A DNA stretch of 64,000 bases from Kordia aestuariivivens (GTDB lineage Bacteria > Bacteroidota > Bacteroidia > Flavobacteriales > Flavobacteriaceae), in contig NZ_JACGWS010000011.1 of assembly GCF_014397005.1 (NCBI RefSeq), positions 124,001-188,000 on the forward strand. Reading direction: 5' to 3'. A program made the position numbers and the translations under genes. This document shows, in pieces, positions 7,646 through 61,741 of this stretch. The notes under the pieces are model-generated. The model was not told the DNA's origin and searched no databases. It saw only the letters and a list, made by a program, of their open reading frames with translations. Each line of letters starts with the position of its first letter. Within the stretch, counting starts at the first letter, position 1.

Positions 7646-7792
7646 TTAATTATTCCGATTATAAATCTCATCTACAACCATAAACTTATAGATTTGATAT
7701 CCACAGAATGATCCTATTGTGTTTCCACAAAGTACTCCTGTAGTTCCACCGCAGTCATTGGTTTCAAAACAAACATCTGTTCCTGCATTAAA
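7646..7792 (-). pseudogene. Leaderless Cys-rich peptide core (decayed RiPP precursor)
   Basis: An open stretch of 48 codons ends in TAA and reads as a typical small-peptide core: ...DVCFETNDCGGTTGVLCGN..., with four cysteines, several Thr/Ser and Gly-Gly. It has no start codon, and an in-frame TAA lies immediately upstream. The same frame continues back to the stop of the sensor kinase gene at 7898. The leader seen in the intact peptides of this window is absent. I read it as the remnant of a precursor gene; read-through from the kinase frame is the less likely alternative. Confidence 0.45.
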
Positions 7793-7897
7793 TTAAGCGA
7801 TACAAAATAGCACATCGCTATACGTTGAATTGTCATCTTTGAAAGTATCTAATTGGATAGATACAGATGTGTACAGACAGGCTTTTGCACATAAAAC

Positions 7898-9499
7898 TTA
7901 GCGTGAAAAGCTATCAGGCAATGGTTTGAAATGGATTTCAAACGCTTTTTCAGGAGTTCGGGTATATTTTAGTGTACCACTCAATTGATCTGTGAGTATT
8001 TGTATTAACTGCATCCCTAAAGAAGTTGCTGTTTCAAAATTAAAATCAGCAGGCAATCCAACCCCATTATCTTTGTAGATGAGTTTGTAATATTCATTTT
8101 GTTTGGTAATTGAAATATGAATACTGTTTTTTTGGTGTTCTTTGAAAGCGTGTTTAAATGAATTTGTGATCAATTCATTGATGATTAACCCTAGATTGGC
8201 TGTTGTGTCTCCATCAAAGATGAGTTCTTTGTCAATATCGATTTCTTTTGTCAAGTCTAAATCCTTGTTGCGCACTGTATCTTCTATAAAGTTAATTAAT
8301 TGTGCTATGTATTCATTAATTTGAACATTTTTTAATGTAAGATTCTCATATAGTTTTTCATGTACTAATGACATGGATTTGATTCGGTTTTGACTATCGC
8401 GGAGTGCTCTTTTTACATTTTCATCTTTGTATTCATCTTCTTGTAGCATTAGAATACCCGAAATCATTTGCATATTGTTTTTTACTCTATGATGTATTTC
8501 CTTGATAAGTGTTTGTATGTTGCTAAGGTTCGCTTCTAGTTCTTGATTCTTGGAAATAACAATTGCGTTGGCTTCTTGTAGATTTTTATTAAGCACTTTA
8601 TTTTTCAAAAATTGATGCAATACTAAAAATAATAACATAGCAACCACACCAAACCATACGTATGAAATATAACTAATGTTTTTACTAATGGTTTGTGGCT
8701 TTTTGTAGGCGCTCCCAACTTTTAATTTTAATCCAAATAATTGAACTGTTGAGTATATAAAGTCTTCTTCTTTTACCTTAAATTTTTTGTAGTATTCAGC
8801 ATCTCTAGCTGTATTGAAAATTTTAGATCCATCATAAATAGCTTCTCGTGTTAAATCTATAGAGTCATTGATTAAAAACTTATGTACATACACATCTTGA
8901 TCGTTGCTTTCGTAAAAATACTCCAACAAGTACTTTACATTTAGTATTGGTGTTACATAACCTACAACTTCACTATCACTATTTTCGGCTGAAAAGTTAA
9001 AAGGAAAACCCGCCCAACCTTCTCTAAGATTGATTGGCGTAAATAGTTTTATAGTCTTGCTTTGCATTAAACGATCTAATTCATCAATTCTTTTTTGAGA
9101 TTTAATCGATTTTACAGAAAACCCTTTTAAGTTATTCGGATCTATTTTTTGAGGTGTGATTACATATTTAAATACATGATTTGTATCGATGTAGTTGATT
9201 AATATAGAATCGTTGAATTTTATTTCTTTTAAAAAGTCATTGAGATAACTCTGTAATTGAATCTCCGTAGGAAACTGTTCGCTGTTTTTTATATAACTTT
9301 TTAGAGATGACACTAAAGAGGCATATACTTCTATTCCAGCTTTTGCATTTATCGTAGCATCAGTGTGTGCTTTGCTTAGTTGTGCATCAACTTTTTGTTG
9401 CTCAAGCGCTTCATAGTTATTTAATATGTTATGCAATAAAAATCCAGTTATTGCTAAAACAATACATACACCAACGTAATATTTGAAACTTTTAAACAT
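7898..9499 (-). CDS. Membrane sensor histidine kinase (HisKA_2/LytS-like type)
   Basis: A 533-residue kinase. A membrane segment lies at about 7-24, then an extracytoplasmic sensing region of about 250 residues, a second membrane segment (about 279-297), a short coiled coil, and the HisKA_2 phosphoacceptor region EIHHRVKNN (His336/His337). The HATPase_c domain has N box NELITNSFKHAF, DNGVGLP and a C-terminal SLGMQLIQ block. The histidine-motif type (HHRVKNN) is shared with general-stress and light-response kinases that often pair with distant response regulators. None is adjacent, so it is an orphan kinase here. The two neighbours upstream are small peptide genes on the same strand, separated by a terminator. 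Confidence 0.9.
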   Translation of the reverse strand: MFKSFKYYVGVCIVLAITGFLLHNILNNYEALEQQKVDAQLSKAHTDATINAKAGIEVYASLVSSLKSYIKNSEQFPTEIQLQSYLNDFLKEIKFNDSILINYIDTNHVFKYVITPQKIDPNNLKGFSVKSIKSQKRIDELDRLMQSKTIKLFTPINLREGWAGFPFNFSAENSDSEVVGYVTPILNVKYLLEYFYESNDQDVYVHKFLINDSIDLTREAIYDGSKIFNTARDAEYYKKFKVKEEDFIYSTVQLFGLKLKVGSAYKKPQTISKNISYISYVWFGVVAMLLFLVLHQFLKNKVLNKNLQEANAIVISKNQELEANLSNIQTLIKEIHHRVKNNMQMISGILMLQEDEYKDENVKRALRDSQNRIKSMSLVHEKLYENLTLKNVQINEYIAQLINFIEDTVRNKDLDLTKEIDIDKELIFDGDTTANLGLIINELITNSFKHAFKEHQKNSIHISITKQNEYYKLIYKDNGVGLPADFNFETATSLGMQLIQILTDQLSGTLKYTRTPEKAFEIHFKPLPDSFSR

Positions 9500-9550
9500 G
9501 TAATAATGATAATTTAAGGGGAAATTATACCTACAAATATACGCGTTTAA

Positions 9551-9583
9551 AAAAAAGCCTTGTTCTTTACGAACAAGGCTTTC
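9551..9583 (-). terminator. Rho-independent terminator after the peptide gene
   Basis: A 12-bp perfect stem (aaagccttgttc / gaacaaggcttt) with loop tttac is followed on the minus strand by a T run. It separates the peptide gene at 9673 from the kinase gene. Confidence 0.85.
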
Positions 9584-9672
9584 TACTTTTATCCAACTAA
9601 AGAGTTAAACATCTTTAAAAAATGCATCCTTATAAACATATTGAAGCCAGATAAAGTTTAGATATACTATTA

Positions 9673-9843
9673 TTAGTGTTGTGGGCAAGGCCATTCTCTG
9701 GTTACTCCTTGACAGTTAGAACAGGTTTCTTGCAAGCCTGTACAAATATCTGTTTTGGCTCCTCCTTTGATTTGTGTCGATTCTAAGTTAGATACTGAAT
9801 TCTTCCCTAAAGTTAACTTTACGTTTAGATTTCTTTTTTTCAT
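9673..9843 (-). CDS. RiPP-type precursor peptide (class I lanthipeptide-like leader)
   Basis: A 56-residue peptide too short for ordinary gene finders. A Lys-rich start (MKKRNLNVKLTLGKNSVSNL) is followed by IKGG at 25-28, then a core with Cys34, Cys41, Cys44 and Cys53 and several Thr/Ser. The leader pattern (MKK..L..L.L.K..ISNL...GG) matches the Bacteroidota natural-product-precursor family that PGAP labels class I lanthipeptide. The Gly-Gly would be the cleavage site for a C39-type exporter. No LanB, LanC or exporter is nearby, so modification would have to be in trans. The own terminator at 9551-9583 supports a real transcript. Confidence 0.75.
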   Translation of the reverse strand: MKKRNLNVKLTLGKNSVSNLESTQIKGGAKTDICTGLQETCSNCQGVTREWPCPQH

Positions 9844-9919
9844 GATCCCTTTTTTTAGTTATCACAAAAATAAGCTATTTGATAATCAATCCTTTACGGT
9901 TTTCCCTTACGATATTAAA

Positions 9920-10096
9920 TCACATCGTACCCTGATTGCACGAACCGTGACAAGATTCTAATTCGCTGGTTCCACACTTGGGAGAAGTTCCGCCTGTTCC
10001 GAATCCGCCAAATAATTGTCCTGATTTCGCAGTTGCTTGCAAGCTAGAAATTAAAGTCTTTTGCAAACTGATTTTTTTGAATGCTCTCTTTTTCAT
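9920..10096 (-). CDS. RiPP-type precursor peptide, Gly-rich linker
   Basis: A 58-residue peptide. The basic leader (MKKRAFKKISLQKTLISSLQ) is followed by a glycine-rich stretch (GGFGTGG, 30-36) and a core with Cys41, Cys49 and Cys53, plus Ser/Thr partners. It lies 76 bp upstream of the peptide at 9673 on the same strand, so the two may share a transcript. The leader is of the same class, but less conserved, with the GG further from the start than in its neighbours. Confidence 0.7.
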   Translation of the reverse strand: MKKRAFKKISLQKTLISSLQATAKSGQLFGGFGTGGTSPKCGTSELESCHGSCNQGTM

Positions 10097-10196
10097 GATT
10101 GTGTTTGTTTTGGTTTATACCATAAGATACTAAATAAACATACAACCCAAAACTTCAAAATCTTACAAATTTTATGATAAGAGTAGTTTATACAAA

Positions 10197-10226
10197 AAAA
10201 GGCAAGCCGAATAGCTTACCTTTTAT
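10197..10226 (-). terminator. Terminator of the 10246-14512 gene group
   Basis: The stem aaggcaagc / gcttacctt (one G-U pair) has a 6-nt loop, with A-run on the plus strand giving a U tract for minus-strand transcripts. It lies 20 bp beyond the stop of the 10246 gene. Confidence 0.7.
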
Positions 10227-10245
10227 ATAGTGATGTAGTGTGTTT

Positions 10246-10731
10246 TTAGTTTAGGAAACGTCCGTGCCAACTGTCGCGTGCAGGAACTTCCCAGTTTTCT
10301 AGGAAATCTGCTTTGGTGGTGACTAAGTTGTTGAATACGATTGTATTTGCCGTAACCGACTTGTCTTTTGCCATTTTACGGAAGTCTTTTAAGTCTTTGT
10401 AGGCTATGTATTCACCTTGCTTATAAGACACGTTCATTTTGTCCATTAAATCAACATTGTATTCTTTTTCTAGTTGTTGAATGAAACGTACAGACGCATC
10501 AATGGAACAACCTGTTGCCGCTTGTGCTTCTTGATCTACCGCAATGATAATGAAACGTTTGTATTTGATTTCAAAGGAAGCTTGTAAGTCACTTCCGTGT
10601 GCTGTCCACTGTGTGATAAAACTAGATAGTTTCGCTTTGATTTCTTCTAGTTCAGTTTCACTGAATGATCTGTTTGCTTGGTAAATCCAAACTTTAGCTT
10701 CATCCGAGATTGTATTAAATTCTACGAGCAT
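10246..10731 (-). CDS. Conserved Bacteroidota protein (often mislabelled ABC transporter ATPase)
   Basis: A 161-residue cytoplasmic protein with no signal peptide or membrane segment. Close relatives in Flavobacteriia are commonly annotated ABC transporter ATPase, but no Walker A, signature or Walker B motif can be seen, so that name is not supported. It starts 5 bp downstream of the preceding gene's stop, as the last gene of the minus-strand group that begins with the MCE protein, and is followed by a terminator. Its function is unknown; conserved linkage to the Fe-S and MCE genes is the only lead. Confidence 0.8.
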   Translation of the reverse strand: MLVEFNTISDEAKVWIYQANRSFSETELEEIKAKLSSFITQWTAHGSDLQASFEIKYKRFIIIAVDQEAQAATGCSIDASVRFIQQLEKEYNVDLMDKMNVSYKQGEYIAYKDLKDFRKMAKDKSVTANTIVFNNLVTTKADFLENWEVPARDSWHGRFLN

Positions 10732-10736
10732 TTTTT

Positions 10737-11375
10737 TTAGTTTAGGACTTCTAGTTTTCTTAGTACTTTATAGGTACGATAGTCTTTGAGCTTTGGATCG
10801 TACATTTCTTTGCTTTCATACGAAACTTTCATCTTGCTTTTTTTGAGATTTTTTACATCAGAAAGCAATTCTTGTCCTTCAAAGTATTCCAACCAAAGTA
10901 GTTTGTATTCGCGTTTGTTTTCACCTTTGAATGTTACGATGTTAAATTGATCATTGGTCAACTTAACCACATTCCCAAGTACAGCCGTGTTGCTTCCTTT
11001 GCTTGGCGCATTTGATTGCTCTTTGATTTCATCTTCTATCAAGTCTTTTGCAAATACCATAAACGTATCTGGGCAAAGTTCCAACATTTTGAATCCAATT
11101 TCTTGCCCTAATACTTCTAAAGAGTTTGCATCATCTAAAGAAACAACCAAGTATTTATCCAATCGGTCTTTGTATTTTCCGTACGATTTCATCATGCATA
11201 ACCCAAGTTGTATTTCTACTTCTTCTTTGGTTAATCCTTCTGAACTTTTTTCACTTACACATTCACAAACTTCTTGTGTCATTTCAGTAAGTACCACATC
11301 TTTAGTGTCTTTTTTGTCTTGTGCAAATCCTATGGTTGCAAAACATAAAGCGATTACTGTTATTATTTTCTTCAT
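10737..11375 (-). CDS. Exported hypothetical protein
   Basis: The frame is open to 11402, but the ATG at 11375 gives a clean signal peptide (MKKIITVIALCFATIGFAQ) and avoids overlap with the upstream gene. The mature part of about 194 residues has a Cys-containing helical N-terminal half (CECVSEKS, LGLCMMKSYGKY, LELCPDTF) and a C-terminal half of beta character ending in YRTYKVLRKLEVLN. It is a periplasmic or surface protein of unknown role. It lies 10 bp after the HdrB-like gene and 5 bp before the next, so it belongs to the same operon. Confidence 0.8.
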   Translation of the reverse strand: MKKIITVIALCFATIGFAQDKKDTKDVVLTEMTQEVCECVSEKSSEGLTKEEVEIQLGLCMMKSYGKYKDRLDKYLVVSLDDANSLEVLGQEIGFKMLELCPDTFMVFAKDLIEDEIKEQSNAPSKGSNTAVLGNVVKLTNDQFNIVTFKGENKREYKLLWLEYFEGQELLSDVKNLKKSKMKVSYESKEMYDPKLKDYRTYKVLRKLEVLN

Positions 11376-11385
11376 CCTTATTTTT

Positions 11386-12165: not shown

Positions 12166-12201
12166 TGTTGTATTTTTTTAAGTTGTAACTTTATTTTTTG
12201 C

Positions 12202-13515: not shown

Positions 13516-13543
13516 GGGTAGTGTAACTTTAGATGGTTATGCT

Positions 13544-14512: not shown

Positions 14513-14576
14513 TTTTTTGGGAATTTGTGAACTTCACAAAATTAAAGATTTTTTTACTAAGAATACGTCTAATTTA

Positions 14577-19184: not shown

Positions 19185-19346
19185 TTAACAAGGCAAATAG
19201 AAAGTCTCTGTCTTCGTTCTATAACAAAGTCGTTGACCTAATATACAGGTATCCTCACACAAAAATAGTATTCCACCTGCGATACCATTTTGTTCTTTCT
19301 TACTCAGTTCTTTTACATTTTCAATTTTTAGAATTGTCTTTAACAT
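19185..19346 (-). CDS. Small Gly-Gly leader peptide, second leader class
   Basis: A 53-residue peptide. The leader MLKTILKIENVKELSKKEQN ends in IAGG (22-25), and the core has Cys30, Cys34, Cys41 and Cys53. The leader (..IL.I....LSK.EQ..I.GG) is unlike the LNK..ISNL class. It matches the two plus-strand peptides at 60937 and 61556, and resembles bacteriocin-type double-glycine leaders cut by C39 peptidase exporters. It is convergent with ridA and shares its terminator. No biosynthetic gene is adjacent. Confidence 0.7.
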   Translation of the reverse strand: MLKTILKIENVKELSKKEQNGIAGGILFLCEDTCILGQRLCYRTKTETFYLPC

Positions 19347-19423: not shown

Positions 19424-19570
19424 CTAACGTATTGCACTAAAAATAACATTGCAAATATTGTTACTTGATGTACACAGTCCTGAAACTCCACCTTTAATAC
19501 TCGCCGAATCTAAGGTTGATACAGTTTCTTTTGAAATGGATAAGCTTTTAATTCTTACTTCTTTTCTGAT
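19424..19570 (-). pseudogene. RiPP-type precursor with no canonical start (ATC at the start position)
   Basis: A 48-codon frame has an intact leader of the LNK..ISNL class (RKEVRIKSLSISKETVSTL, then SIKGG at 24-28) and a short core with Cys33 and Cys40. Where the ATG should be, the codon is ATC (19568-19570), preceded directly by TAG in frame; no ATG, GTG or TTG lies upstream. Either a single G-to-C change killed the gene, or a rare ATC initiation is used. The core is also poor in cysteine, which favours decay. Confidence 0.55.
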
Positions 19571-19725
19571 CTAAAATTTGTAGTTTTTGCTGCATAAAGT
19601 TATAAAAATCAATAGGTTACACTTTACGGTTTTACCCTATTTAACAAAATTTTAAAAAGTAGCCGTCTGATTAAAATACATTTCGATAATAATTCTTTAA
19701 TTTTAAAGGACATAATACACCTTGC

Positions 19726-23154: not shown

Positions 23155-23316
23155 CTACATGCAAGCCATTGTAATGAGACAATGACAACGCGATCCTGGT
23201 AATCCATAGCATTTAGTTACAAAAGTTGGATCTATACCTCCAACTAAAGTATCGTGCTTTAAATTTGAAATAGATTTTTTGTTCAGTTTTAATGATGTAA
23301 GATTACTTTTTTTCAT
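23155..23316 (-). CDS. RiPP-type precursor peptide (class I lanthipeptide-like leader)
   Basis: A 53-residue peptide. The leader MKKSNLTSLKLNKKSISNLK is a textbook member of the LNKKSISNL class, with LVGG at 24-27. The core has Cys36, Cys44, Cys46 and Cys52, with few Ser/Thr (Thr31, Thr34, Ser42, Thr49). It stands alone on the minus strand with its own terminator. It is one of the best preserved leaders in the window and almost identical in its first 20 residues to those at 29467 and 53141. Confidence 0.78.
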   Translation of the reverse strand: MKKSNLTSLKLNKKSISNLKHDTLVGGIDPTFVTKCYGLPGSRCHCLITMACM

Positions 23317-25196: not shown

Positions 25197-26852
25197 TTAA
25201 TCAACAGTTATCAATTCAGAAATAATCAAATTATTATGAATGTCTTTTACAACTAATTGATATGCGCCAACGGGCAACGAAAAATTGATACCTTTTTTAT
25301 CAATCGCACTAATTTTATTGAGAATAGCTATTGAATTCGATTTGTATTTTGAATACTCATTTGCAAAATAGAATGAAAATAATAGTTGCTCATTCTCATG
25401 ATTGTTTAGGAGTTCATTTGTGAAATTGATCGTTTTAAGTTGCTCCTTTTCATAAATAGATTCTAAAGCGGGTTTTAGATTGTTTAGTAAGAAGTAATCG
25501 ACATTTGTATTAATTTTTGGCACATTTTTTAACGCAGCTGATTCCAGTAAAGTCAATGTGTTTGAAGAAGTATACGGAATTTCTACTTGGTCAATTGTTA
25601 CAGGATTAATGTTTGTTAATTCCATAAAATATTCCGCCATTCGTTTGTTCGTAGCATCTTTTTCTAAAATATGATCAATTCCTGAATAGACCACTATTTT
25701 TGCGTTTGGATCTGTATCTAAGATGCTTTTTATGTTTATTGCTTGCGTTTGTTCTCTGTTTTCTGTGCTAAAATCATCATACCCAACAATTGTAAAACCT
25801 AATTTTAATGCTTCTCTGATGAAAAGTCCGAAATAAGGTTCTCGGGTGTAATAGCCCGAAGATTTCAGTGGAAAACTACTGTTTTGAAAGAATGAATTTT
25901 TCTCTTTATCGATAGCTTCTACAGCCAAATATTTAAAACCGTTTTCTTTTAAGGTAGCTAACATTTTTAAAGCAGCGATTCTATGTTTTGGATGCCAATG
26001 CATTTCATTGAGCATGAGCACTTGTGTCTTGCTTGAAATTTGCTTTATTTTTGCTAAAAACGAATCTTCAAAAGTTACATTTCTGTTGTTTTTTAAAATA
26101 GAATCAATATGTTTTTTTAAATATTTTTCCCTTTTGAGTTCAAATTTAGCAACCAAGTCATTGTAATTTTTATAAGTCGGATCTTTGGAAAGAATCGTTG
26201 TTAATAACTGAAACTTTGTCCACTCATTATTGTTCTTCTTTTCTATCGGAGCATTCTCAAATTTACTTTCTACGAATAAAATATTGTCTTCTTGCTTATA
26301 CGTGTTGAATACTTTCATGTACGTTAGCTCATCTTTCAATGAATTATCAAATCGTACAGAGTTTACTATTGATTTCCCGTCTTGTAGCATTGATCTATTT
26401 GATTTATGCGTGCCAATTGCTTTTAAATACACATAAATTGCTTTTGTTTTTTCTGTTTTTCGGTACACGACAAAATTCTCAATAGTATCATTTACAACTA
26501 AATCAACAGTAGTAGATTCTGTGCTACTTTGAAGTGTCTTATCAATTTTATAGAAAAAAAGAAGGTCATATTTGGGTGAAGAATACGCTTTTCCGGCTAC
26601 GACTAAATCTTTGTAGCTAATGTTTAAATCATTGGTACTCATGATTTTTTTGTACTCACTTTTACTAGGAAATAAATAGTTAATATCTCCAAAAAAACGA
26701 GCGCTGATTTTTAAAGAATCGTTGTAGAATTCATTTCCGTTGAAATAATTATAGTTTCTATTCACGTCAACAACACTACATGATGATACTAGAATGAGTA
26801 CTATTACATATAGAACTGCTTTATGACTTCCATTCAGTTGTCTGCGGATCAT
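25197..26852 (-). CDS. Lipoprotein with TraB/ChaN/EreA-like domain, last gene of the grasp-with-spasm operon
   Basis: From the ATG at 26852 the protein is 551 residues with a lipoprotein signal (LILVSSC). The open frame extends to 26891. Residues about 270-420 resemble the ChaN/TraB/erythromycin-esterase fold: LMLNEMHWHPKHR, YLAVEAI and KIVVYSGIDHIL carry His/Glu residues placed as in those metal-dependent hydrolases. The N-terminal part is unrecognised beta-rich sequence. The start lies inside the end of the SPASM maturase gene (32-bp overlap), so it is translated with that operon. It might process, export or give immunity to the peptide. This is inference. Confidence 0.7.
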   Translation of the reverse strand: MIRRQLNGSHKAVLYVIVLILVSSCSVVDVNRNYNYFNGNEFYNDSLKISARFFGDINYLFPSKSEYKKIMSTNDLNISYKDLVVAGKAYSSPKYDLLFFYKIDKTLQSSTESTTVDLVVNDTIENFVVYRKTEKTKAIYVYLKAIGTHKSNRSMLQDGKSIVNSVRFDNSLKDELTYMKVFNTYKQEDNILFVESKFENAPIEKKNNNEWTKFQLLTTILSKDPTYKNYNDLVAKFELKREKYLKKHIDSILKNNRNVTFEDSFLAKIKQISSKTQVLMLNEMHWHPKHRIAALKMLATLKENGFKYLAVEAIDKEKNSFFQNSSFPLKSSGYYTREPYFGLFIREALKLGFTIVGYDDFSTENREQTQAINIKSILDTDPNAKIVVYSGIDHILEKDATNKRMAEYFMELTNINPVTIDQVEIPYTSSNTLTLLESAALKNVPKINTNVDYFLLNNLKPALESIYEKEQLKTINFTNELLNNHENEQLLFSFYFANEYSKYKSNSIAILNKISAIDKKGINFSLPVGAYQLVVKDIHNNLIISELITVD

Positions 26853-27828
26853 AATTGCAAGTGGAATTATGTTCATATACTTCATTTTCAAGGTTGCTTT
26901 TTAGTACAGGAATTCTATTGTCTGGACAAACGTATCTAAATTCACACGATTTGCAAACTTCAATTTTTTCCTTAGGTATCTTCCATAATTTTTTAAAAGC
27001 TTTGGAAGTAACTATTGATTTTATATCATCCTTTTCAATAGAACCATGTGTAATTTCGGAATTATAATAATTCTTAATATTTCCTTCATTATCAATGTAT
27101 GCTTTTCTATTAAAGAAAAGGTTATGCTTTAAAGATTCTCTGTATGCTTTTTGGTTTAAAATAAAATCGTGTATGTTCGTTATTCGCTTTGTGAGCACTG
27201 TATCAAAAGAGCCGTTTTCATAGCTAAATGGCTTGTCTTCGCCTTGCTCCTGTTCGTTGGACTCAAAAAAGACTGTTTTTTTGAATCTTGGAAACGTATA
27301 GTGAAGATTCAAAATTTCAGCTTCACTTTCCGCTTCATGCTTAGTGATCAGTGAAACACTTTGGATTTTTGATCCTTCAAGCAGATTCAAAACGTTCTCT
27401 AGATGTGTACTATCAACTTCTTTTCTTGTCAAGAATACAACTTGAATGCAACCTAAAGAATTGATGTTTTGTAATAACGCTATTTTACTTTCTTGCAAAG
27501 TGTCTATTTCTAAAAAAAGAATATCCAACAAAAAAGGAGAACTGAATTTGTTGCTATTACTCGGAAATCGACTTACATCTTTCGTCAAATGAATCAATTC
27601 ATTCGCTACTAAATAATTGAAATACTTATCTAACAAAGCAGTTTGCGACTCATATTCTTTATAAATTGTTGCCAACGTATTTGTTTCGTTTTCTAAAAGT
27701 AAATCTATAATAGAGTTTGGGAAAAAGAAAAAACTTCCACGTTGCAAATCAAAAATAACGCCTCTTTTTGATCCTTTTACAGGAACGCAAGAATTATGAA
27801 ACTTGAAATAATTGTCTTTATCAATCAT
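26821..27828 (-). CDS. Grasp-with-spasm system SPASM-domain peptide maturase
   Basis: A 335-residue protein. The C-terminal about 55 residues carry a SPASM-type cysteine cluster, CKSCEFRYVC followed later by a lone Cys in NSTCNYD, that would hold an auxiliary Fe-S cluster. The radical-SAM CxxxCxxC motif is absent from the whole protein, as is known for the SPASM partner of grasp-with-spasm systems. It would act with the ATP-grasp enzyme (28013) on the precursor at 29055, perhaps as a substrate-recognition or redox partner. The start overlaps the stop of the 63-residue gene by 4 bp (ATGA), implying translational coupling. Confidence 0.85.
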   Translation of the reverse strand: MIDKDNYFKFHNSCVPVKGSKRGVIFDLQRGSFFFFPNSIIDLLLENETNTLATIYKEYESQTALLDKYFNYLVANELIHLTKDVSRFPSNSNKFSSPFLLDILFLEIDTLQESKIALLQNINSLGCIQVVFLTRKEVDSTHLENVLNLLEGSKIQSVSLITKHEAESEAEILNLHYTFPRFKKTVFFESNEQEQGEDKPFSYENGSFDTVLTKRITNIHDFILNQKAYRESLKHNLFFNRKAYIDNEGNIKNYYNSEITHGSIEKDDIKSIVTSKAFKKLWKIPKEKIEVCKSCEFRYVCPDNRIPVLKSNLENEVYEHNSTCNYDPQTTEWKS

Positions 27829-28016
27829 AAAAATGCTGGTTTATAAAAATCGTAACACCTCATTTTATCTGTCGTATAAAAATCAGAAGCCACAAATGTT
27901 AAATCTGATCTTTTTATAGGAGCAACTTCTTTGCCTTCAATAAAAAAAACATTTATAGGCAAACAGTCTTTAAACTCTAATGGAATTTCATCAACTAAAA
28001 CAGTCTTCATATTCAA
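27825..28016 (-). CDS. 63-residue protein between the two grasp-with-spasm maturases
   Basis: This small protein is not recognised. It begins MNMKTVLVDEIPLEFKDCLP, contains two Cys, and ends DKMRCYDFYKPAFL. It has no Gly-Gly and no leader-like pattern, so it does not look like a precursor. It overlaps both neighbours by exactly 4 bp, so it is fully coupled to the maturases and likely made in equal amount. Possibilities are a precursor-recognition protein, an adaptor between the two enzymes, or a split domain of the SPASM protein. Its beginning (VLVDEIPLEF) looks beta-stranded. Confidence 0.75.
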   Translation of the reverse strand: MNMKTVLVDEIPLEFKDCLPINVFFIEGKEVAPIKRSDLTFVASDFYTTDKMRCYDFYKPAFL

Positions 28017-28975
28017 TCTAATTTTTTAATTAAATAATTTGCTACTTTCTTATGTAAATTATAATTGCAAGGGAAACTAGTCATCCCAAATTGCCCAGAA
28101 GGATTCACTTCTAAAAAATAATAATTACCATCAATACCTTTTACCAAATCAATAGATCCGGTGTTTAAGCCTATATGCTTCATTAGGTTTGACAACTTTT
28201 TTTCAATAGCACTTGGAAGTTTATATCTGGCAACTCTATTTGGATTGTCGAAATCGTAATTTCTAAAATCGACTTTGGTTTTTTCATTATTCTGAGAAAA
28301 AATAACCATGCTGTAGAACTTCTTTTCAATAAAAAATATTCTTAATTCATATTCTTTTACAATATACCCTTGAAATAATGAAGGACTGAATTTTGGAGTT
28401 ACCTTTGAAAGGTCTTCTATTTTTTGCGTATAAAAAGGATAATTTTTTCCTTCATACTGAATATGTTTTCCTTCTCCTAAGGACTTAGAAATAATTGAAT
28501 TATTGTTATTTTTAAAAAAGGCTTCAAGATCAGTCTTTTTAGAAGTAACGGTTGTGTTGGGTATTTTTAGCCCAAATTGATGCGCTAAATTTAATATTTC
28601 AAGCTTCGTTAGCATGTTCTTTCTTTTGAACAACCACTTTTTATCTTCCAATAAATTAAAGATGATGGTTCTTAAAACAGAAAATTCTGAACTAACATAG
28701 CGTACCAAATCATTTTTACTGCCAAATTCATCTTGATATCCTTTAAAAAAACCAAACTTTCGATACCAAACTACGGTGATTTCTTTAAAATAAAATTTAA
28801 TGTTTTTTGAAACGATGTATGAATCTTCCATTTTTACTGGATCGAGGAAAAAAGAAGCCTTTCCAGTCATAATATCTTCATCATTCAGCCTAAAAAACGG
28901 GGTGTTTTTAAAATGTAACCAATCGATAACCGCTTGCGTGTCATAATCTCTTGGTGTGCTTAAAATTAATATCAT
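28013..28975 (-). CDS. Grasp-with-spasm system ATP-grasp peptide maturase
   Basis: A 320-residue ATP-grasp ligase of the MvdC/MvdD (graspetide) kind. It has an N-terminal preATP-grasp region (MILILSTPRDYDTQAVIDWL), IISKSLGEGKHI as the ATP-binding lysine loop (about 165), GYIVKEYELRIFFIEKKF and the Mg-binding EVNPSGQFG (about 290-298). Such enzymes form omega-ester or omega-amide links between Ser/Thr/Lys and Asp/Glu side chains in a precursor. It directly follows the acidic precursor gene at 29055 (80 bp) and is first in the chain ligase, 63-residue protein, SPASM protein, lipoprotein. Confidence 0.9.
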   Translation of the reverse strand: MILILSTPRDYDTQAVIDWLHFKNTPFFRLNDEDIMTGKASFFLDPVKMEDSYIVSKNIKFYFKEITVVWYRKFGFFKGYQDEFGSKNDLVRYVSSEFSVLRTIIFNLLEDKKWLFKRKNMLTKLEILNLAHQFGLKIPNTTVTSKKTDLEAFFKNNNNSIISKSLGEGKHIQYEGKNYPFYTQKIEDLSKVTPKFSPSLFQGYIVKEYELRIFFIEKKFYSMVIFSQNNEKTKVDFRNYDFDNPNRVARYKLPSAIEKKLSNLMKHIGLNTGSIDLVKGIDGNYYFLEVNPSGQFGMTSFPCNYNLHKKVANYLIKKLD

Positions 28976-29054
28976 AAATTGATAGTATTAAAAAAAATAA
29001 AATGAGATTGTATAACGAATCATACAATCTCATCATAATATTAGTAATAAAATA

Positions 29055-29219
29055 TTACTTTAAGTCATCCCAATCTTCATCAGAACCATCGTCTCCATCA
29101 GCAGGAGCTCCACTTCCAACAGTTACCGTGTTAGAACTGAATGTGTTAGACGCCATTCTTCCTCCAAAAATTGAATCGATATCAACTTTTTCACAATTAA
29201 AATCTTCTAATTTTTTCAT
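29055..29219 (-). CDS. Grasp-with-spasm (graspetide-type) precursor peptide
   Basis: A 54-residue peptide. A short leader (MKKLEDFNCEKVDIDSIFGG, GG at 19-20) is followed by a Thr/Ser-rich segment with Thr26, Ser28, Ser29, Thr31, Thr33 and Ser36. The tail is strongly acidic, with Asp41, Asp43, Asp44, Asp47, Glu48, Asp49, Asp51 and Asp52 before LK. Donor hydroxyls followed by carboxylates is exactly the composition an ATP-grasp macrocyclase needs. It lies just upstream of the ATP-grasp gene on the same strand. The core has no Cys, which sets it apart from every other peptide here. The leader Cys9 is a curiosity. Confidence 0.8.
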   Translation of the reverse strand: MKKLEDFNCEKVDIDSIFGGRMASNTFSSNTVTVGSGAPADGDDGSDEDWDDLK

Positions 29220-52856: not shown

Positions 52857-52872
52857 AATACTAAATGAGTTT

Positions 52873-53004
52873 CTACCAGCAAGGGAAGCAGGTTGCTTTA
52901 CAAGTTAAAAAACAACTCACAAAGCAATTGGTAAGACACGTATTATCTGTTACTTGAGGTAACAGACATACGGGACATCCAGATAATGGATTTGTTGGAC
53001 TTAG
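52873..53004 (-). pseudogene. Very Cys-rich peptide core without leader or start
   Basis: A 43-codon frame ending in TAG, with eight cysteines (10, 13, 23, 27, 31, 35, 39 and 42). The pattern from 23 on has a Cys every fourth residue (CLTNCFVSCFLTCKATCFPC). There is no ATG, GTG or TTG in frame and a TAA lies directly upstream at 53005-53007. At the junction the sequence turns into the ttagac/ttgttgga simple repeats (52990-53052). I infer that the leader was lost when those repeats expanded or inserted. Confidence 0.55.
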
Positions 53005-53052
53005 TTAGACTCCTTTGATTGTTGGATTTATTAAACTTACTTAGACTTGTTA
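52990..53052. repeat. Degenerate ttgttggac/ttagactt repeats
   Basis: Words ttgttggac, ttagttagac, ttgttggatt and ttagacttgtta overlap the 5' side of the decayed core at 52873. They are the same family of words as 47593-47698. Confidence 0.75.
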
Positions 53053-53091
53053 TATGCTGAGCGGAGTAGAAGTCTTGGTTTTGTGTGAAAC

Positions 53092-53117: not shown

Positions 53118-53140
53118 CCTATATCGTAATACTAAGAATC

Positions 53141-53350
53141 TTAACAGAAAAGTATTCCAGATGCAACGCATGCAAGTGCTGGACATGTCCATCCGCAATT
53201 CGTTACACATTTTGTAGCACAAGCGCTTCTTGGATTAGATACTACGCAAGGATTGGAAGCTGCTTCTGCTGCTAATCCTCCACCAACTTCGTCTAGGTTA
53301 GAGATTGCACTTTTGTTTAATGTTAGTTTGTTGATTTTTTTTTTTTTCAT
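53141..53350 (-). CDS. RiPP-type precursor peptide, Cys-rich core
   Basis: A 69-residue peptide. The leader MKKKKINKLTLNKSAISNLD ends in EVGGG (21-25); an Ala-rich spacer follows, then a core with seven Cys (35, 44, 48, 52, 56, 61 and 69), three of them spaced by four as in the neighbouring core at 52873. This is a clear LNK..ISNL class leader. A run of nine T precedes the coding start on the genome, marking a homopolymer near the translation start. The membrane LytTR gene lies upstream and is transcribed in the same direction. Confidence 0.8.
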   Translation of the reverse strand: MKKKKINKLTLNKSAISNLDEVGGGLAAEAASNPCVVSNPRSACATKCVTNCGWTCPALACVASGILFC

Positions 53351-53526
53351 AATGGTTAAAATTTAATGGTTATATGGTTATTAGGTTTTGAGTTTTTCAG
53401 TAAAATTTTGCAGAAATGATGTGCTGAAAAACGTATTCCCAATATTACCTTCTTTTTTAGGTATTTGAAAATAAATGTGACGAATGCATGTGTTTTGTGA
53501 CGAATGCAATAGTATGATTTTTCGCC

Positions 53527-54411
53527 TTATTTTAAATATAGAAGTACTATTCTTACGTAACTTTTACTGACAGGCACTAGCGTAGTTGTATTTTCTAACG
53601 AAAGTAATATTCGTTGTGAGTTTCCTTTGTGCGAATTTATTTTATGAATGTTTACATAGTATTGACGATGGCATTTTACGATGAAATCATAGTTTTTTAG
53701 TCGTTCTGCAATGAAACGCAATGGTGCGCGCAATAGTTGTGCTTTTTTGTCGCCAATGGAATAGATTTCAACATAGTTTCCGGAAGCTTTTATATAGCCA
53801 ATTTGCGAAGGTGTGACTTCAATACATTGATTTACGTCTGGCGATTTTAGAATGATTTTTTTGTCTGATTCAATTTTTTCATTTGCAATGTCAACAGTTA
53901 CTTGAGCAACTACATTACTTCTATTATTTACAGCTTTGTTTGTGTATAATTGATCTAATAAAATTGTAATGATGAACAACGGAATGCTGATCATGATGGA
54001 TCGTGGAATGGTGACAAATAGATAATAATTTGTATCAACTACACCAACATCCATCATAAAGCGATGGTACATGGTTCCAATGAATCCGGCAATACTCATG
54101 ATGGCAACTAATAATAACCAATGCTGATAGGTTTTCCAAGGTCGATGTTCATTGGCAAATTGTAGTTTACGAAAAAGCAACCAATACAGAAAGTAAATCA
54201 CCAAAGCTGTATTGATTCCGTAACCTAATTGAATGACTTTTATGGGAATTTCATATTTAGGAATCGCTAAGTAGTTATCATACGGATCAAATATGTAGAC
54301 AAACATCGTAAGCACAATTCCAATGACAACAGAAAGTTTTAGATAATACGATTGGTTATCTATGAGTTGGTGTTTTTGTTGAAAGTAGTCTGTTATTTTG
54401 TCTATTGTCAC
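53527..54411 (-). CDS. Membrane-anchored LytTR transcription factor
   Basis: The frame is open to 54540, but the N-terminal 43 residues are low-complexity and basic, and the GTG at 54411 gives a better start ((M)TIDKITDYFQQKHQLI). The protein is then about 294 residues. Four membrane segments (about 25-43, 62-80, 96-115 and 132-152) are followed by a LytTR DNA-binding domain (about 195-294; VTPSQIGYIKASGNYVEIY, FIVKCHRQYYVNIHKI). Such one-component membrane LytTR factors sense at the membrane without phosphorylation. It lies next to the Cys-rich peptide genes and may control them. Confidence 0.85.
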   Translation of the reverse strand: MTIDKITDYFQQKHQLIDNQSYYLKLSVVIGIVLTMFVYIFDPYDNYLAIPKYEIPIKVIQLGYGINTALVIYFLYWLLFRKLQFANEHRPWKTYQHWLLLVAIMSIAGFIGTMYHRFMMDVGVVDTNYYLFVTIPRSIMISIPLFIITILLDQLYTNKAVNNRSNVVAQVTVDIANEKIESDKKIILKSPDVNQCIEVTPSQIGYIKASGNYVEIYSIGDKKAQLLRAPLRFIAERLKNYDFIVKCHRQYYVNIHKINSHKGNSQRILLSLENTTTLVPVSKSYVRIVLLYLK

Positions 54412-54637
54412 GGTTTTTTGATTAAAAAAGTGACTTGAAGTTACAAAATTGTTTTGTTTTTTATGGAAATTAACCTGTGATTTGTGACCAAATTGATTTT
54501 TATGTGATGAATTATACTTTGTGAAAAAGAAAAAATACACGCTCTAAATTTTTAACCTTTAAGGTATTTATTAAGTGTGAATACTACTTAGATATGCGTA
54601 CGAAGTCTTCAATTTCTTATAATGAAACTATTTTTAT

Positions 54638-56245: not shown

Positions 56246-56270
56246 TATGAGGCTTTTATTTAATCAAAAA

Positions 56271-58627: not shown

Positions 58628-58843
58628 TTAACATAGTATTGATAGACAAACTAATGTAACAACAGTTGGTATGCTATTATTTCCATTTGTTTTGTCATCT
58701 GTCATGTGTGTGTCAATACCACATACAGTGTTTGGATCGTTTATATCGCTTTCGATACCTGTACCTCCAATAATTTTAGTTGTTACTGATAGGTTTACAA
58801 TTTTTGTTTTGTTTAATGCCAATGTTAATGTACGTTTTTTCAT
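58628..58843 (-). CDS. RiPP-type precursor peptide
   Basis: A 71-residue peptide. The leader MKKRTLTLALNKTKIVNLSV continues to KIIGG (23-27), matching the LNK..ISNL class. The core is acidic and Asn/Thr-rich with Cys41 early and Cys66 and Cys71 at the end (VVTLVCLSILC). The hydrophobic ending is unlike the other cores. It lies between a TPR-AraC regulator gene (upstream, same strand) and a lipoprotein gene. Confidence 0.72.
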   Translation of the reverse strand: MKKRTLTLALNKTKIVNLSVTTKIIGGTGIESDINDPNTVCGIDTHMTDDKTNGNNSIPTVVTLVCLSILC

Positions 58844-58952
58844 CTGTCATAGTTTTAATGAAATCTGAATCTAAAAAAAATACACTCTTTATCAGCTATT
58901 TTTTCGTCTGAGAAAGTATATATTCATGAATTTGTAGCGTTTTTTATGAAAT

Positions 58953-60689
58953 TTACGCTGAACTGCTTATCTTTTTTAGTTTTCTGATGAAATATGAAGG
59001 ATTGATTCCTTTTGCATTGAAAAACGCTTTGGAAAACGATTGTACATTGTTGAACCCAACTTCTGCAGCAATAGCCTTTACCGTGTATTTTAGATATGTT
59101 GGATTGGTTTTTAGCTGCTCAATTGTATATTCAATACGCAAGTTATTGATGTATGTGGAGAAGGAACATTTTTTGTAATGATTGACTACTTTTGATAGAT
59201 AGTTTGGATTGGTATGAAGTCCTTTTGGCAAATCATTGAGCGTAGTTTGATTGGAAATGAATTTGTTTTCATGTTCAAATGCTTCAAGTTTTTGCAATAT
59301 GTCATTTACAATATCGATTGGAATTGCTATTTTTTGTTCGTCAGAAGCTAGGCTTTTTGATGATTTTTTAGGTTTTTTTTCGTTGATGACTTCCTCAAAT
59401 CGACGTTGGTATGTTTTCCGTTTTCGGTATTGTATGCCAAAACCAATGAGTAAGAACAGAATAAGCACAAATAAACCAATGATTGCTTTTTTGAATCTGT
59501 TTCCTTGTTGTTGCTTTTCCTCGCGCAGGTTTTCTTTTTCTGCTTTTAGCTTCGGAATGTCATACTCTTTAAAGATTGCTTTGTTGAGATAAAGTTCGTC
59601 TGCTTTGAGAATACTGTCAACTTTCATTAATTGGTTTTTGTATATCAATTGATTTTTTAAGTCGTTTTTATTTTTGTAATAGGTATCTAATTGTATGTAT
59701 GCTTCTCTTGTGATGGGAAATATGGAGTATGTTTTTTGAAATATACTATCTACTTTTTTAAAGAAATTGATTGCCTTCTCGGGTTGATTTAATCCTGCAT
59801 GCGCTTTTCCAGAGTAATAGTATACAAATACCAATTTATCATCATCGTGAATATTTTCAAAGTATGGAGTGTATTTTTGAATGCTGTCTATAGCAATTTG
59901 ATAGTTTTTTTTATGATAGTTTGTTACACCTTCATTGAATGCGAAGTGATTTTTGTACGATTCGTTTTTTAATCGAATGGCTTCCCGATGTCCAATTTTA
60001 TTGTAATGATTGGCAGAATCTACGGTTTTGTTATCATTGAAGATGTTTGCCAATGCCGCAATTGAGTTGAAATAGGTTATTGTATTTACGGCTTCTTTAT
60101 TTTTTTGCGTGTACGCATAGTTCTGCCGATATAATTCCAACGCTTCTTTGATGTTTCCTGTACGTCTTTTTACCGTTCCTATGTTATAATTTGCGCGAGA
60201 AATCATATCTTTTTGGTCATGTTTTTGCGCATATTCAAAGAATTGAAGATAGTTGTCTAATGCCCGTTGATAGGCGTGTTTTCCATAATAAAAATCTCCT
60301 TTTTTCTCGTAAGCAATGGCGGGATAATGAATGCTCGAATTATTTTTAGTCAACGCAATGATACTATCACTATAAGCAAGTACATTTTCGTCGGTATGTG
60401 TTACGGAAAGAATTCTGTAGCCAACAATGATGTTTGTACTATCTGTGGCTTGCTTGTCGTTTTTTGCTTTCTCTAAATATTGTTCGCCGTAGTAAATTTT
60501 TTGTTCTATGGTAGTGGCTTCTTGTAGCAACTTGTATATTTCGCCATACTCTTTGCGTGTCACTTCATCAATAGCAGTTTCTTGTTTTTGATTACAACTA
60601 CTTATATACAGTATTATTAGAACGATCATACATAGAAAACCAATTTTCTTGTATGAAAACCGCGTTTCTTTTTTAATATCTAATGTCAA
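58953..60689 (-). CDS. TPR-containing membrane AraC-family regulator
   Basis: A 578-residue protein with an N-terminal lipoprotein-like or membrane segment (about 17-32, FLCMIVLIILYISSC). Tetratricopeptide repeats follow (about 70-350; YYGKHAYQRALDNYLQFFEYA, NIGTVKRRTGNIKEALELY), then a membrane segment (about 399-418) and a cytoplasmic AraC-type double helix-turn-helix (about 470-578; YLSKVVNHYKKCSFSTYINN, VKAIAAEVGFNNVQSFSKAFF). The TPR-membrane-AraC layout is a Bacteroidota one-component regulator in which periplasmic TPRs sense a ligand. It is divergent from three peptide genes at 60937-61741 and codirectional with one at 58628. Confidence 0.9.
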   Translation of the reverse strand: MTLDIKKETRFSYKKIGFLCMIVLIILYISSCNQKQETAIDEVTRKEYGEIYKLLQEATTIEQKIYYGEQYLEKAKNDKQATDSTNIIVGYRILSVTHTDENVLAYSDSIIALTKNNSSIHYPAIAYEKKGDFYYGKHAYQRALDNYLQFFEYAQKHDQKDMISRANYNIGTVKRRTGNIKEALELYRQNYAYTQKNKEAVNTITYFNSIAALANIFNDNKTVDSANHYNKIGHREAIRLKNESYKNHFAFNEGVTNYHKKNYQIAIDSIQKYTPYFENIHDDDKLVFVYYYSGKAHAGLNQPEKAINFFKKVDSIFQKTYSIFPITREAYIQLDTYYKNKNDLKNQLIYKNQLMKVDSILKADELYLNKAIFKEYDIPKLKAEKENLREEKQQQGNRFKKAIIGLFVLILFLLIGFGIQYRKRKTYQRRFEEVINEKKPKKSSKSLASDEQKIAIPIDIVNDILQKLEAFEHENKFISNQTTLNDLPKGLHTNPNYLSKVVNHYKKCSFSTYINNLRIEYTIEQLKTNPTYLKYTVKAIAAEVGFNNVQSFSKAFFNAKGINPSYFIRKLKKISSSA

Positions 60690-60936
60690 TGTGGTAGATT
60701 TTTTTAGTTATGTAAAAAAATGATATCTAAAAATAGTTCTTTTTTCAAAAAAAAACATGGATTCATGAATATATACTACAAATTCATGAATGTTATACAA
60801 CACTGTTTGTCAGCTATTTTTTTGAGCTGTTGCTTTGTAATGCACAAATGTAACAGCCAATACCGAGTTTGTGCAGACATAAACAGTACATGTCTTAAAA
60901 TGTTTACTGTAACAGGAACACTTTAAATTTTAATTT

Positions 60937-61164
60937 ATGAAAAAATCAATTTTAAACATTGGAACCGTATTAAACAAAGAGCAACAAAGAAACATCAATG
61001 GTGGAGATTCACTTACAAATCTTCAAGAGTATTGCGGTTCGCTTTCTATTGTATATTATTCCTTAACAAATGATCCTGAAGGCGATGGAATTAGTGCTGA
61101 AAATGATGCTTTAGCAACACAAACATTAATACAATGGAATACGCACTGTATAGGTGTCAATTAA
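60937..61164 (+). CDS. Small Gly-Gly leader peptide, second leader class
   Basis: A 75-residue peptide. The leader MKKSILNIGTVLNKEQQRNI ends NGG (21-23). Its pattern (IL.IG..L.K.EQ..I.GG) is shared with the peptides at 61556 and 19185 and resembles bacteriocin double-glycine leaders. The core is acidic and long, with only Cys33 and Cys71, so it may form one disulfide or be unmodified. A hairpin terminator follows at 61202. Confidence 0.75.
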   Translation: MKKSILNIGTVLNKEQQRNINGGDSLTNLQEYCGSLSIVYYSLTNDPEGDGISAENDALATQTLIQWNTHCIGVN

Positions 61165-61201
61165 TGTAAATTCTTTTTTGCAAGAACAATTTTTATAAGA
61201 T

Positions 61202-61238
61202 AGAAGGCTTTGAAGTTTTCAGAGTCTTCTGTTTTTTT
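61202..61238 (+). terminator. Terminator of the 60937 peptide gene
   Basis: The stem agaaggctttgaa / ttcagagtcttct (with mismatches) is followed by gttttttt. It is similar in sequence to the terminator at 61752, suggesting duplication of a peptide-plus-terminator unit. Confidence 0.8.
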
Positions 61239-61306
61239 AGCATGAAAGACATAAAAAGCGAGTGTCTATAACTGTTCGCTTGAAAAATAATTTTAACGAT
61301 TTACTC

Positions 61307-61480
61307 ATGAAAAAACAGCATTTACACCAATTGAATATTAAGAAAAAGACAGTTTCTAATTTGAACACTTCTAACTTAAAAGGAGGAACAGATATGCCAA
61401 CACTTGATATTTTAAATTCTCAATGTGTATGTGGCACTAATTTATTTTGTAAGACCATACCTCCTTTTTGCATTTTTTAA
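61307..61480 (+). CDS. RiPP-type precursor peptide (class I lanthipeptide-like leader)
   Basis: A 57-residue peptide. The frame is open from 61262, but ATG 61307 starts the proper leader: MKKQHLHQLNIKKKTVSNLN, with LKGG at 24-27. The core has Cys40, Cys42, Cys48 and Cys55 with Ser/Thr before them. Leader class LNK..ISNL. It lies between two peptides of the other leader class, on the same strand and within 800 bp. Confidence 0.75.
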   Translation: MKKQHLHQLNIKKKTVSNLNTSNLKGGTDMPTLDILNSQCVCGTNLFCKTIPPFCIF

Positions 61481-61555
61481 AACAAAGTCAAACACCTAAT
61501 AAACAGCAAGTTTATTTTTTACGCTTGCGCAATAATTAACCTTTAAATTTTTATT

Positions 61556-61741
61556 ATGAAACAACACATTTTAAGTATTGGAAAAGCTTTAAGTAAAGCA
61601 GAACAAAGCACTATTCATGGCGGCCTTGCAGAAGAGTGCATCCCGCTTTTGGGCGCATGTACTAGCAATGAACAATGTCATCCAGTTCATAATGGTTTTC
61701 CAGCTATTTGCCAATTTGGATGTTGTGTAACACCCATTTAA
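61556..61741 (+). CDS. Small Gly-Gly leader peptide, Cys-rich
   Basis: A 61-residue peptide. The leader MKQHILSIGKALSKAEQSTI ends HGG (21-23), the same class as 60937 and 19185. The core has Cys28, Cys35, Cys41, Cys52, Cys56 and Cys57, a pattern able to form three disulfides (a defensin- or knottin-like small protein is one possibility). A strong terminator follows at 61752. Confidence 0.78.
   Translation: MKQHILSIGKALSKAEQSTIHGGLAEECIPLLGACTSNEQCHPVHNGFPAICQFGCCVTPI

What the first reader, a model, noticed from the sequence alone, without database searches (positions are those of the whole stretch)
7646..61741. About fifteen RiPP-like precursors or remnants in one 64-kb window, in two leader classes
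Class A leaders (MKK..L..L.LNK..ISNL...GG) are at 9673, 9920, 19424, 23155, 29467, 53141, 58628 and 61307. Class B leaders (IL.I...L.K.EQ..I.GG) are at 19185, 60937 and 61556. Other members are the graspetide precursor at 29055 and leader-poor cores at 7646, 52725 and 52873. Core sequences vary widely while leaders are conserved, as expected for substrates of shared trans-acting enzymes and exporters. Apart from the grasp-with-spasm operon, no LanB/LanC, radical SAM or C39 exporter gene is in the window. That they form one trans-processed repertoire is inference.
Basis: partly seen in the sequence, partly recalled or inferred. Interest (0 to 1): 0.85.

Follow-up and report, generated by a model that had tools for sequence, protein, structure and literature searches.

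The report
Scattered lanthipeptide precursors with paired receptors
A marine bacterium of the genus Kordia has a very large number of tiny genes for chemically tailored peptides spread round its genome but only one class I dehydratase to tailor them, and many of the peptides sit directly behind a membrane 'antenna' regulator, which looks like a large peptide-signalling network.

Summary
The window lies in a Kordia-like genome (Flavobacteriaceae). Its class A leaders are the known Bacteroidota class I lanthipeptide leader (LxLxKx5L...GG, NF038153). By my count at least 212 such precursors lie in this genome; 80 of the 122 loci counted hold a single one. All 11 genomes of the genus searched have 23-60 leader matches (E<=0.01) and exactly one LanB, with LanC beside it and a C39 exporter 7-10 kb away. 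A trans-processed repertoire is thus well supported in silico for class A. Class B is a separate Cys-rich family without an assigned enzyme; the graspetide has its own operon; 'leader-poor cores' and 19424 are remnants.

Unexpected: a family of membrane regulators (TPR solenoid, one transmembrane helix, AraC domain; window 58953-60629), with 14-44 matches per genome. In this genome 30 of 34 readable ones have a lanthipeptide-type precursor just downstream on the same strand; the pairing recurs in Aquimarina. At the hub, TPR domain and peptide core diversify together while HTH, LanB and leader stay conserved. I propose receptor-pheromone pairs. No experiment has been done.

The parts
58953..60629 (-). 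TPR - transmembrane - AraC (HTH_18) regulator, proposed peptide receptor (558 aa from ATG)
   Evidence: Pfam HTH_18 and TPR; one TM at 382-400; AF2 model pLDDT 88 with TPR solenoid 28-320, long helix 324-416, HTH 438-557; 41 matches in the genome at E<=1e-10
58628..58843 (-). regulator-linked (class C) precursor, 109 bp behind the stop of the regulator; proposed cognate pheromone
   Evidence: orthologues behind the orthologous regulator in three other genomes of the genus share DDKTN in two of three cores (L210-L212)
9673..9843 (-). class A (lanthipeptide-type) precursor
   Evidence: NF038153 21.7 bits, cut-off 22; counted
9920..10096 (-). class A precursor
   Evidence: NF038153 16.9 bits; E 2.6e-7
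23155..23316 (-). class A precursor
   Evidence: E 3.7e-10; NF038153 13.7 bits
29467..29667 (-). class A precursor
   Evidence: E 5.6e-9; not listed by NF038153
53141..53350 (-). class A precursor, 176 bp behind a LytTR-type membrane regulator
   Evidence: NF038153 24.2 bits, above cut-off
61307..61480 (+). class A precursor
   Evidence: 19.0 bits; E 5.1e-9
60937..61164 (+). class B precursor
   Evidence: E 2.2e-11 (class B HMM trained on set including it)
61556..61741 (+). class B precursor
   Evidence: E 2e-11 (same caveat)
19185..19346 (-). class B precursor
   Evidence: E 8.4e-13 (same caveat)
19424..19600 (-). class A remnant without in-frame start codon
52725..52856 (-). Cys-rich ORF without leader, probable remnant
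52873..53040 (-). Cys-rich frame with in-frame stop, probable remnant
53527..54540 (-). membrane LytTR regulator upstream of precursor 53141
   Evidence: Pfam LytTR, DUF6962; two TM predicted
25197..29219 (-). grasp-with-spasm graspetide operon (precursor 29055-29219, ATP-grasp 28013-28975, SPASM 26821-27828, unknown 25197-26891); separate system
   Evidence: TIGR04192, TIGR04193

Best explanation
Two layers. (1) Class A precursors of this window are members of a genome-wide set of class I lanthipeptide-type precursors (at least 212 by my count) that are tailored in trans by the genome's only LanB (split: LanB N-terminal plus separate C-terminal elimination protein) and the neighbouring LanC, and cut at Gly-Gly and exported by the C39 ABC transporter of the same locus on contig 16. 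(2) A subset, including 58628-58843, sits directly behind a membrane regulator with a periplasmic TPR solenoid, one membrane helix and a cytoplasmic AraC DNA-binding domain. The mature core, released into the periplasm or medium, is proposed to bind the TPR domain of the regulator next door and so switch its DNA-binding domain; targets are probably neighbouring precursor and lan genes. Shown by sequence: leaders, counts, single LanB, conserved hub, pairing, co-diversification, predicted fold. Inferred: lanthionine formation, export, TPR in the periplasm, binding, and every regulatory target.
For: Leader identity: NF038153 and the LxLxKx5L..GG motif of Walker et al. (passages of PMC7268733). 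Count: 126 places at E<=1 with NF038153, 150 of 150 scored candidates with profile A1, union 192 without one evident chance hit, 194 ORFs at E<1e-5 in held stretches plus 18 places outside them = 212. 123 of 126 begin with ATG at leader position 1; cores have Cys 12.0%, Thr 12.6% (194 ORFs), leaders Cys 0.1% (122 leaders). One LanB in 11 of 11 genomes of the genus, LanC adjacent and C39 within 7-10 kb in 11 of 11; hub content LanC, LanB_N, LanB_C, HlyD, ABC. Natural control: G004 has one LanC match only, that of the hub, and 28 leader matches. Pairing: 30 of 34 regulators with readable downstream DNA, judged by eye; with a leader HMM trained only on other genera, 23 of 33 regulators against 26 of 304 other genes at E<1, and 8 of 33 against 5 of 304 at E<1e-3; 20 of 27 regulators from ten other genomes of the genus against 2 of 27 in a control interval; 12 of 16 in Aquimarina and 4 of 15 in other genomes. 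Co-diversification (12 pairs, 9 genomes): mean identity HTH 0.84, TPR 0.47, leader 0.67, core 0.32; LanB 0.91; core follows TPR (r 0.64, 0 of 4000 permutations), also given HTH, fourfold sites and long helix together (r 0.50, 0 of 4000), while leader does not (r -0.17) and HTH or long helix given TPR do not. Fold: TPR solenoid, long helix, HTH at pLDDT 88; among bacterial chains the peptide receptors RapF, RapJ and NprR match by sequence profile and Rap-peptide complexes by fold.
Against: No product, transcript or binding datum. Best TPR matches in sequence and fold are eukaryotic LGN and engineered TPRs, and MalT domain III, a non-peptide sensor, matches about as well as Rap, so the fold alone does not say peptide receptor. 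Class C leaders of Kordia (3 tested) hit no NCBIfam model, and one Aquimarina class C peptide also passes the cut-off of TIGR04149, an rSAM-modified RiPP family, so another enzyme could act. Four of 34 regulators have no such ORF, 7 of 27 in other genomes fall below the HMM threshold, and 11 of 15 matches outside Kordia and Aquimarina have none. Core-HTH correlation given TPR is weakly present with one of two similarity measures (r 0.22, p 0.03). The genome has further LanC-like proteins: a LanM on C34, a LanC beside a HopA1-domain protein on C44, one on C17. No enrichment of the flavobacterial promoter motif upstream of class A precursors (24 of 193, shuffled 25.5).
Confidence: 0.6

Rival explanations
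1. The peptides behind the regulators are ordinary lanthipeptide products (for instance antimicrobials); the TPR-AraC protein merely controls the neighbouring gene in response to another cue such as envelope stress.
For: AraC-type and TPR genes near RiPP genes of Bacteroidota have been noted without assigning a role (passages of PMC8939145 and PMC10352776). 24 of 30 class C cores have two or more Cys, as expected of lanthipeptides.
Against: A regulator of an antimicrobial need not co-diversify with the core; here the TPR domain, not HTH or long helix, tracks the core.
Confidence: 0.25
2. TPR-AraC proteins are immunity or resistance sensors: they detect a toxic self- or foreign lanthipeptide in the periplasm and turn on protection, the neighbouring gene encoding the toxic peptide.
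For: Co-diversification of sensor and core is equally expected of sensor and toxin.
Against: No recurrent immunity or efflux gene was seen beside the pairs, but this was not searched systematically; many pairs stand alone.
Confidence: 0.1
3. Most dispersed class A precursors are decaying duplicates without function.
For: Some remnants exist: 19424, 52725, 52873, 7646; two regulators carry an in-frame stop.
Against: 123 of 126 counted leaders start with ATG and run into an open frame without stops inside the match; strong positional conservation just upstream of ATG (A at -12 in 94% of 193; 8 of 18 window genes); hub and window class C cores keep motifs across species.
Confidence: 0.05

Closest known systems
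Prochlorosins (class II lanthipeptides of marine picocyanobacteria, one LanM with 29 precursors; passage of PMC12328550)
   Same: Conserved leaders with Gly-Gly, highly variable cores, one tailoring enzyme serving many scattered genes (scattering in cyanobacteria recalled).
   Different: Here class I enzymes (split LanB plus LanC), Bacteroidota, at least 212 precursors by my count, and a subset paired with regulators.
Bacteroidota class I lanthipeptides with LxLxKx5L leaders (Walker et al. 2020; passages of PMC7268733)
   Same: Leader motif, Gly-Gly, C39 protease in the cluster.
   Different: Those were found next to LanC; most places here are far from any lan enzyme.
RRNPP peptide quorum sensing (Rap-Phr, PlcR, NprR; passages of PMC10075063)
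   Same: Adjacent receptor and small propeptide gene; TPR receptor that controls transcription.
   Different: RRNPP receptors are intracellular and the published survey covered Firmicutes; here the receptor spans the membrane, has a C-terminal AraC domain and the peptide has a lanthipeptide-type leader.
Grasp-with-spasm graspetides (TIGR04192, TIGR04193)
   Same: The operon 25197-29219 is one.
   Different: A separate system with its own enzymes; not part of the class A repertoire.

Membership tests
Class I lanthipeptide precursor (NF038153 / LxLxKx5L) | Leader matches NF038153 above cut-off | tested here: inconclusive
   In the window one of the seven intact class A precursors (53141) passes alone, and 9673 passes with its neighbours in the frame; 32 or so of 126 places pass genome-wide, the rest are below but match the genus profile
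Class I lanthipeptide precursor (NF038153 / LxLxKx5L) | Core with Cys and Ser/Thr | tested here: met
   118 of 122 cores have at least 2 Cys and 2 Ser/Thr
Class I lanthipeptide precursor (NF038153 / LxLxKx5L) | LanB and LanC encoded in the genome | tested here: met
   11 of 11 genomes of the genus
Class I lanthipeptide precursor (NF038153 / LxLxKx5L) | (Methyl)lanthionine in the product | not testable with these tools
   needs mass spectrometry
RRNPP quorum-sensing system | Receptor gene adjacent to small propeptide gene | tested here: met
   30 of 34, 20 of 27 in other genomes
RRNPP quorum-sensing system | TPR receptor | tested here: met
   Pfam, model
RRNPP quorum-sensing system | Cytoplasmic receptor, N-terminal HTH where present | tested here: not met
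   a TM segment between TPR and a C-terminal HTH_18 is predicted in 34 of 34 (model)
RRNPP quorum-sensing system | Unmodified peptide, re-imported by Opp | not testable with these tools
   leader type suggests C39 export and possible modification; inference
Prochlorosin-type trans-processed library | One tailoring enzyme, many dispersed precursors | tested here: met
   one LanB; 192 places in 122 loci
Prochlorosin-type trans-processed library | Class II LanM enzyme | tested here: not met
   hub enzymes are LanB/LanC; a LanM exists on C34 but LanM-length LanC matches are in only 3 of 11 genomes (open frames 974-982 aa)

The most novel reading that the evidence does not exclude
Kordia, and in smaller form Aquimarina, run a multi-channel lanthipeptide-type pheromone network: each of dozens of TPR-TM-AraC membrane receptors has its own post-translationally tailored ligand encoded directly behind it, all ligands matured by one LanB/LanC/C39 hub, and receptor TPR domain and ligand core co-evolve into private channels. 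It would be a one-component, transmembrane, Gram-negative counterpart of RRNPP signalling that uses RiPPs as words.
Probability: 0.45. Interest if true: 0.93.

Novelty: new variant of a known kind. Interest (0 to 1): 0.83.

Why it matters
If layer 1 holds, one class I lanthipeptide synthetase accepts more than two hundred natural cores, several times the 29 quoted for prochlorosins, which would make it a natural library for lanthipeptide engineering and a test of how a class I enzyme tolerates diversity. If layer 2 holds, Bacteroidota have a peptide-signalling class in which the receptor and its ligand can be read off the genome as neighbouring genes; my nine paper searches found no description of such a pair. 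It would make density sensing in marine flavobacteria directly testable by gene deletion.

Tried and rejected
One repertoire for all fifteen members: rejected (graspetide has its own enzymes; class B differs in leader and core composition; four members are not intact genes).

Chance ORFs: rejected (53 matches against 1 in 26 other-genus genomes of the family).

Shared promoter motif upstream of class A precursors: TAnnTTTG and TTG-N17-21-TAnnTTTG are not enriched over shuffles (24 against 25.5, 3 against 2.3 of 193); led nowhere. What is conserved is a short A-rich block at -13 to -11 and A at -3, which I recall as the usual flavobacterial translation-start context.

Gene neighbours of class A precursors other than the TPR-AraC family: mostly unrelated genes by eye; two AraC proteins with three predicted TM and the LytTR protein of the window are also followed by precursors; too few to judge.

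Precedent in print: searches (nine of ten allowed) gave no paper describing a dispersed Kordia precursor set or a TPR-AraC plus lanthipeptide-leader pair. I saw passages only of PMC7268733, PMC7477175, PMC10734526, PMC12328550, PMC10352776, PMC10075063 and PMC8939145. The library is open-access only.
Full report
WHAT THE WINDOW HOLDS. 19424 lacks a start codon, 52725 lacks a leader, 52873 has an in-frame stop and 7646 has no ATG. The graspetide operon is confirmed (TIGR04192, TIGR04193). The window is C3:124001-188000 of a 5.46 Mb, 46-contig genome. The genus is named from LanB: 87-91% identity to LanB of eight named Kordia records, 56-67% to other genera of the family and 51% to one other record; the own record may be left out there, so the species is not known. 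Named records and unnamed G genomes overlap (the K. algicida LanB position coincides with G009), so they are not independent sets.

CLASS A IS GENOME-WIDE. NF038153 gives 126 places at E<=1, with 150 of 235 candidates scored. A profile of 50 leaders from this genome gives 150 matches for 150 scored candidates of 383, so the tool was saturated. The union is 193 places, 192 without one evident chance hit, in 122 loci at 1.5 kb linkage, 80 of them single. In the stretches that I held (15.9% of the genome, chosen for hits), 194 ORFs match at E<1e-5; with 18 places outside the stretches the lower bound is 212. These HMMs were trained on the same leaders, so this is a count, not a test. The test is: at E<=0.01 all 11 genomes of the genus have 23-60 matches (108 candidates scored in each), 25 of 26 same-family genomes of other genera have none and one has 1, 3 of 23 more distant genomes of the order have 1, 1 and 5, and none of 14 control genomes rings. 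123 of 126 places start with ATG. 118 of 122 cores have at least two Cys and two Ser/Thr. The window holds 7 strong ones against a genome mean of about 2.5 per 64 kb at the lower bound.

THE HUB. PF04738 finds exactly one LanB in each of 11 genomes. In each, a LanC lies about 100-150 bp upstream and a C39 transporter 7-10 kb downstream on the other strand (my reading of positions). In this genome (C16) the order is ECF-type sigma factor, TPR protein, LanC, LanB N-terminal part, LanB C-terminal part, two TPR-AraC regulators each followed by a small precursor, two LanA, then HlyD and ABC-C39 on the other strand. The eight named Kordia loci have regulator, class C peptide and one to two LanA at the same place. 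Other LanC-like proteins exist: LanM (C34), LanC beside a HopA1-domain protein (C44), one on C17. G004 has only the hub LanC and still 28 leader matches, which speaks for the hub as the general machine.

REGULATOR-PEPTIDE PAIRS. The window protein 58953-60629 is TPR, one TM, AraC. It has 41 matches in the genome at E<=1e-10: 34 TPR-TM-AraC proteins with readable surroundings, one without held DNA, one multi-TM protein and five short ones. 20 of 41 lie within 1.2 kb of a counted class A place against 3.9 expected under uniform placement. Reading downstream DNA, 30 of 34 have a same-strand ORF of 50-93 aa with a leader of the type L.L.K..IA.(8-14)GG, mostly 70-125 bp behind the stop, one at 205 and one at 317 (by eye, some leaders lack a clean GG, one core lacks Cys; two of the 34 regulators have an in-frame stop). 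Controls: an HMM trained only on Aquimarina and other genera finds such an ORF behind 23 of 33 regulators and 26 of 304 other genes at E<1 (14 of 33 and 19 of 304 at E<0.1; 8 of 33 and 5 of 304 at E<1e-3); the stretches were chosen for precursors, so the background is inflated. In 27 regulator loci of ten other genomes of the genus, 20 have it in the first 350 bp and 2 in a control interval at 700-1050 bp (a strict regular expression gave 18 of 30 including three own loci). Each of 11 genomes has 14-44 matches at E<=1e-25. In six Aquimarina LanB loci 12 of 16 regulators have such a peptide; in 15 matches from nine other genomes 4 have it.

CO-DIVERSIFICATION. For 12 hub pairs from nine genomes, mean identity is 0.84 (HTH), 0.47 (TPR), 0.67 (leader), 0.32 (core), and 0.91 for LanB. 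Core similarity follows TPR similarity: r 0.64, 0 of 4000 permutations; given HTH 0.54 (p 0.00025); given fourfold sites 0.55; given HTH, fourfold sites and long helix 0.50 (0 of 4000). Leader given these does not (r -0.17, p 0.82). Core against HTH given TPR is 0.08 (p 0.24), but 0.22 (p 0.03) with a local-alignment score. Without one near-duplicate genome the result holds (0.58, p 0.00025). With 12 related pairs this is suggestive, not proof; Mantel tests do not remove all phylogeny. The leader follows the long helix given TPR (r 0.62), unexplained.

FOLD. The AF2 model (pLDDT 88.3, pTM 0.71) has a TPR solenoid 28-320, a 93-residue helix 324-416 that would cross the membrane, and the HTH 438-557. 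PDB profile search: engineered TPR and LGN first (1e-32, 3.5e-29), then RapF 6e-17, RapJ 3.5e-12, NprR 1.5e-11. Foldseek: LGN first (4e-7), RapF-peptide 1.9e-5 (TMt 0.57), RapJ-CSF 6.2e-5 (TMt 0.61), MalT domain III 3.2e-4 (TMt 0.59). So the fold is that of TPR ligand binders, with bacterial peptide receptors among the nearest, but not only those.

READING. Layer 1 (trans-processed class I repertoire) I hold at about 0.8, layer 2 (receptor-pheromone) at about 0.45-0.5; the joint statement at 0.6 means that its main lines are right. Known in kind: lanthipeptide leaders, substrate-tolerant lanthipeptide synthetases, TPR peptide receptors. New as far as my searches reach: the scale in class I, the dispersal as a genus trait, and the membrane TPR-AraC plus lanthipeptide-leader pair.

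Noticed in passing
L043:9361-12234 (C34): LanM-type protein (DUF4135 plus LanC-like), a class II lanthionine synthetase; LanM-length LanC matches in 3 of 11 genomes of the genus.
   Followed up: partly
L042:9033-11349 (C44): HopA1-domain protein beside a LanC-like protein, an arrangement I recall from class V lanthipeptide enzymes; LanC of this length (426-427 aa) in 10 of 11 genomes of the genus.
   Followed up: partly
C3:20733-22228 and 22 ORFs in all in held stretches: Class B leaders (M(L)K.IL.I.G...LSK.EQ..I.GG) form a second dispersed family with Cys-rich, Thr-poor cores; some look like disulfide-rich peptides. Enzyme unknown, whole-genome count not done.
   Followed up: partly
window 53141-54540; C2:116706 and C2:123021: Other membrane regulators (LytTR with two TM; two AraC proteins with three TM) are also followed by class A precursors: perhaps a parallel receptor type.
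   Followed up: no
L039:11357-11500 approx. (C16): A 44-aa leader peptide directly behind the LanB C-terminal gene of the hub; similar short peptides in K. algicida and Kordia TARA_039 hubs (L085, L088).
   Followed up: no
upstream of 193 class A precursors: A at -13, -12, -11 in 88, 94, 86% and A at -3 in 88%; only 8 of 18 window genes have A at -12.
   Followed up: partly
L093, L097, L098 (Psychroserpens and relative): Tandem arrays of 3-6 near-identical leader peptides about 7-8 kb upstream of LanB.
   Followed up: no
C16:5379-6748: ECF-type sigma factor and a TPR protein directly upstream of LanC, possible hub control.
   Followed up: no
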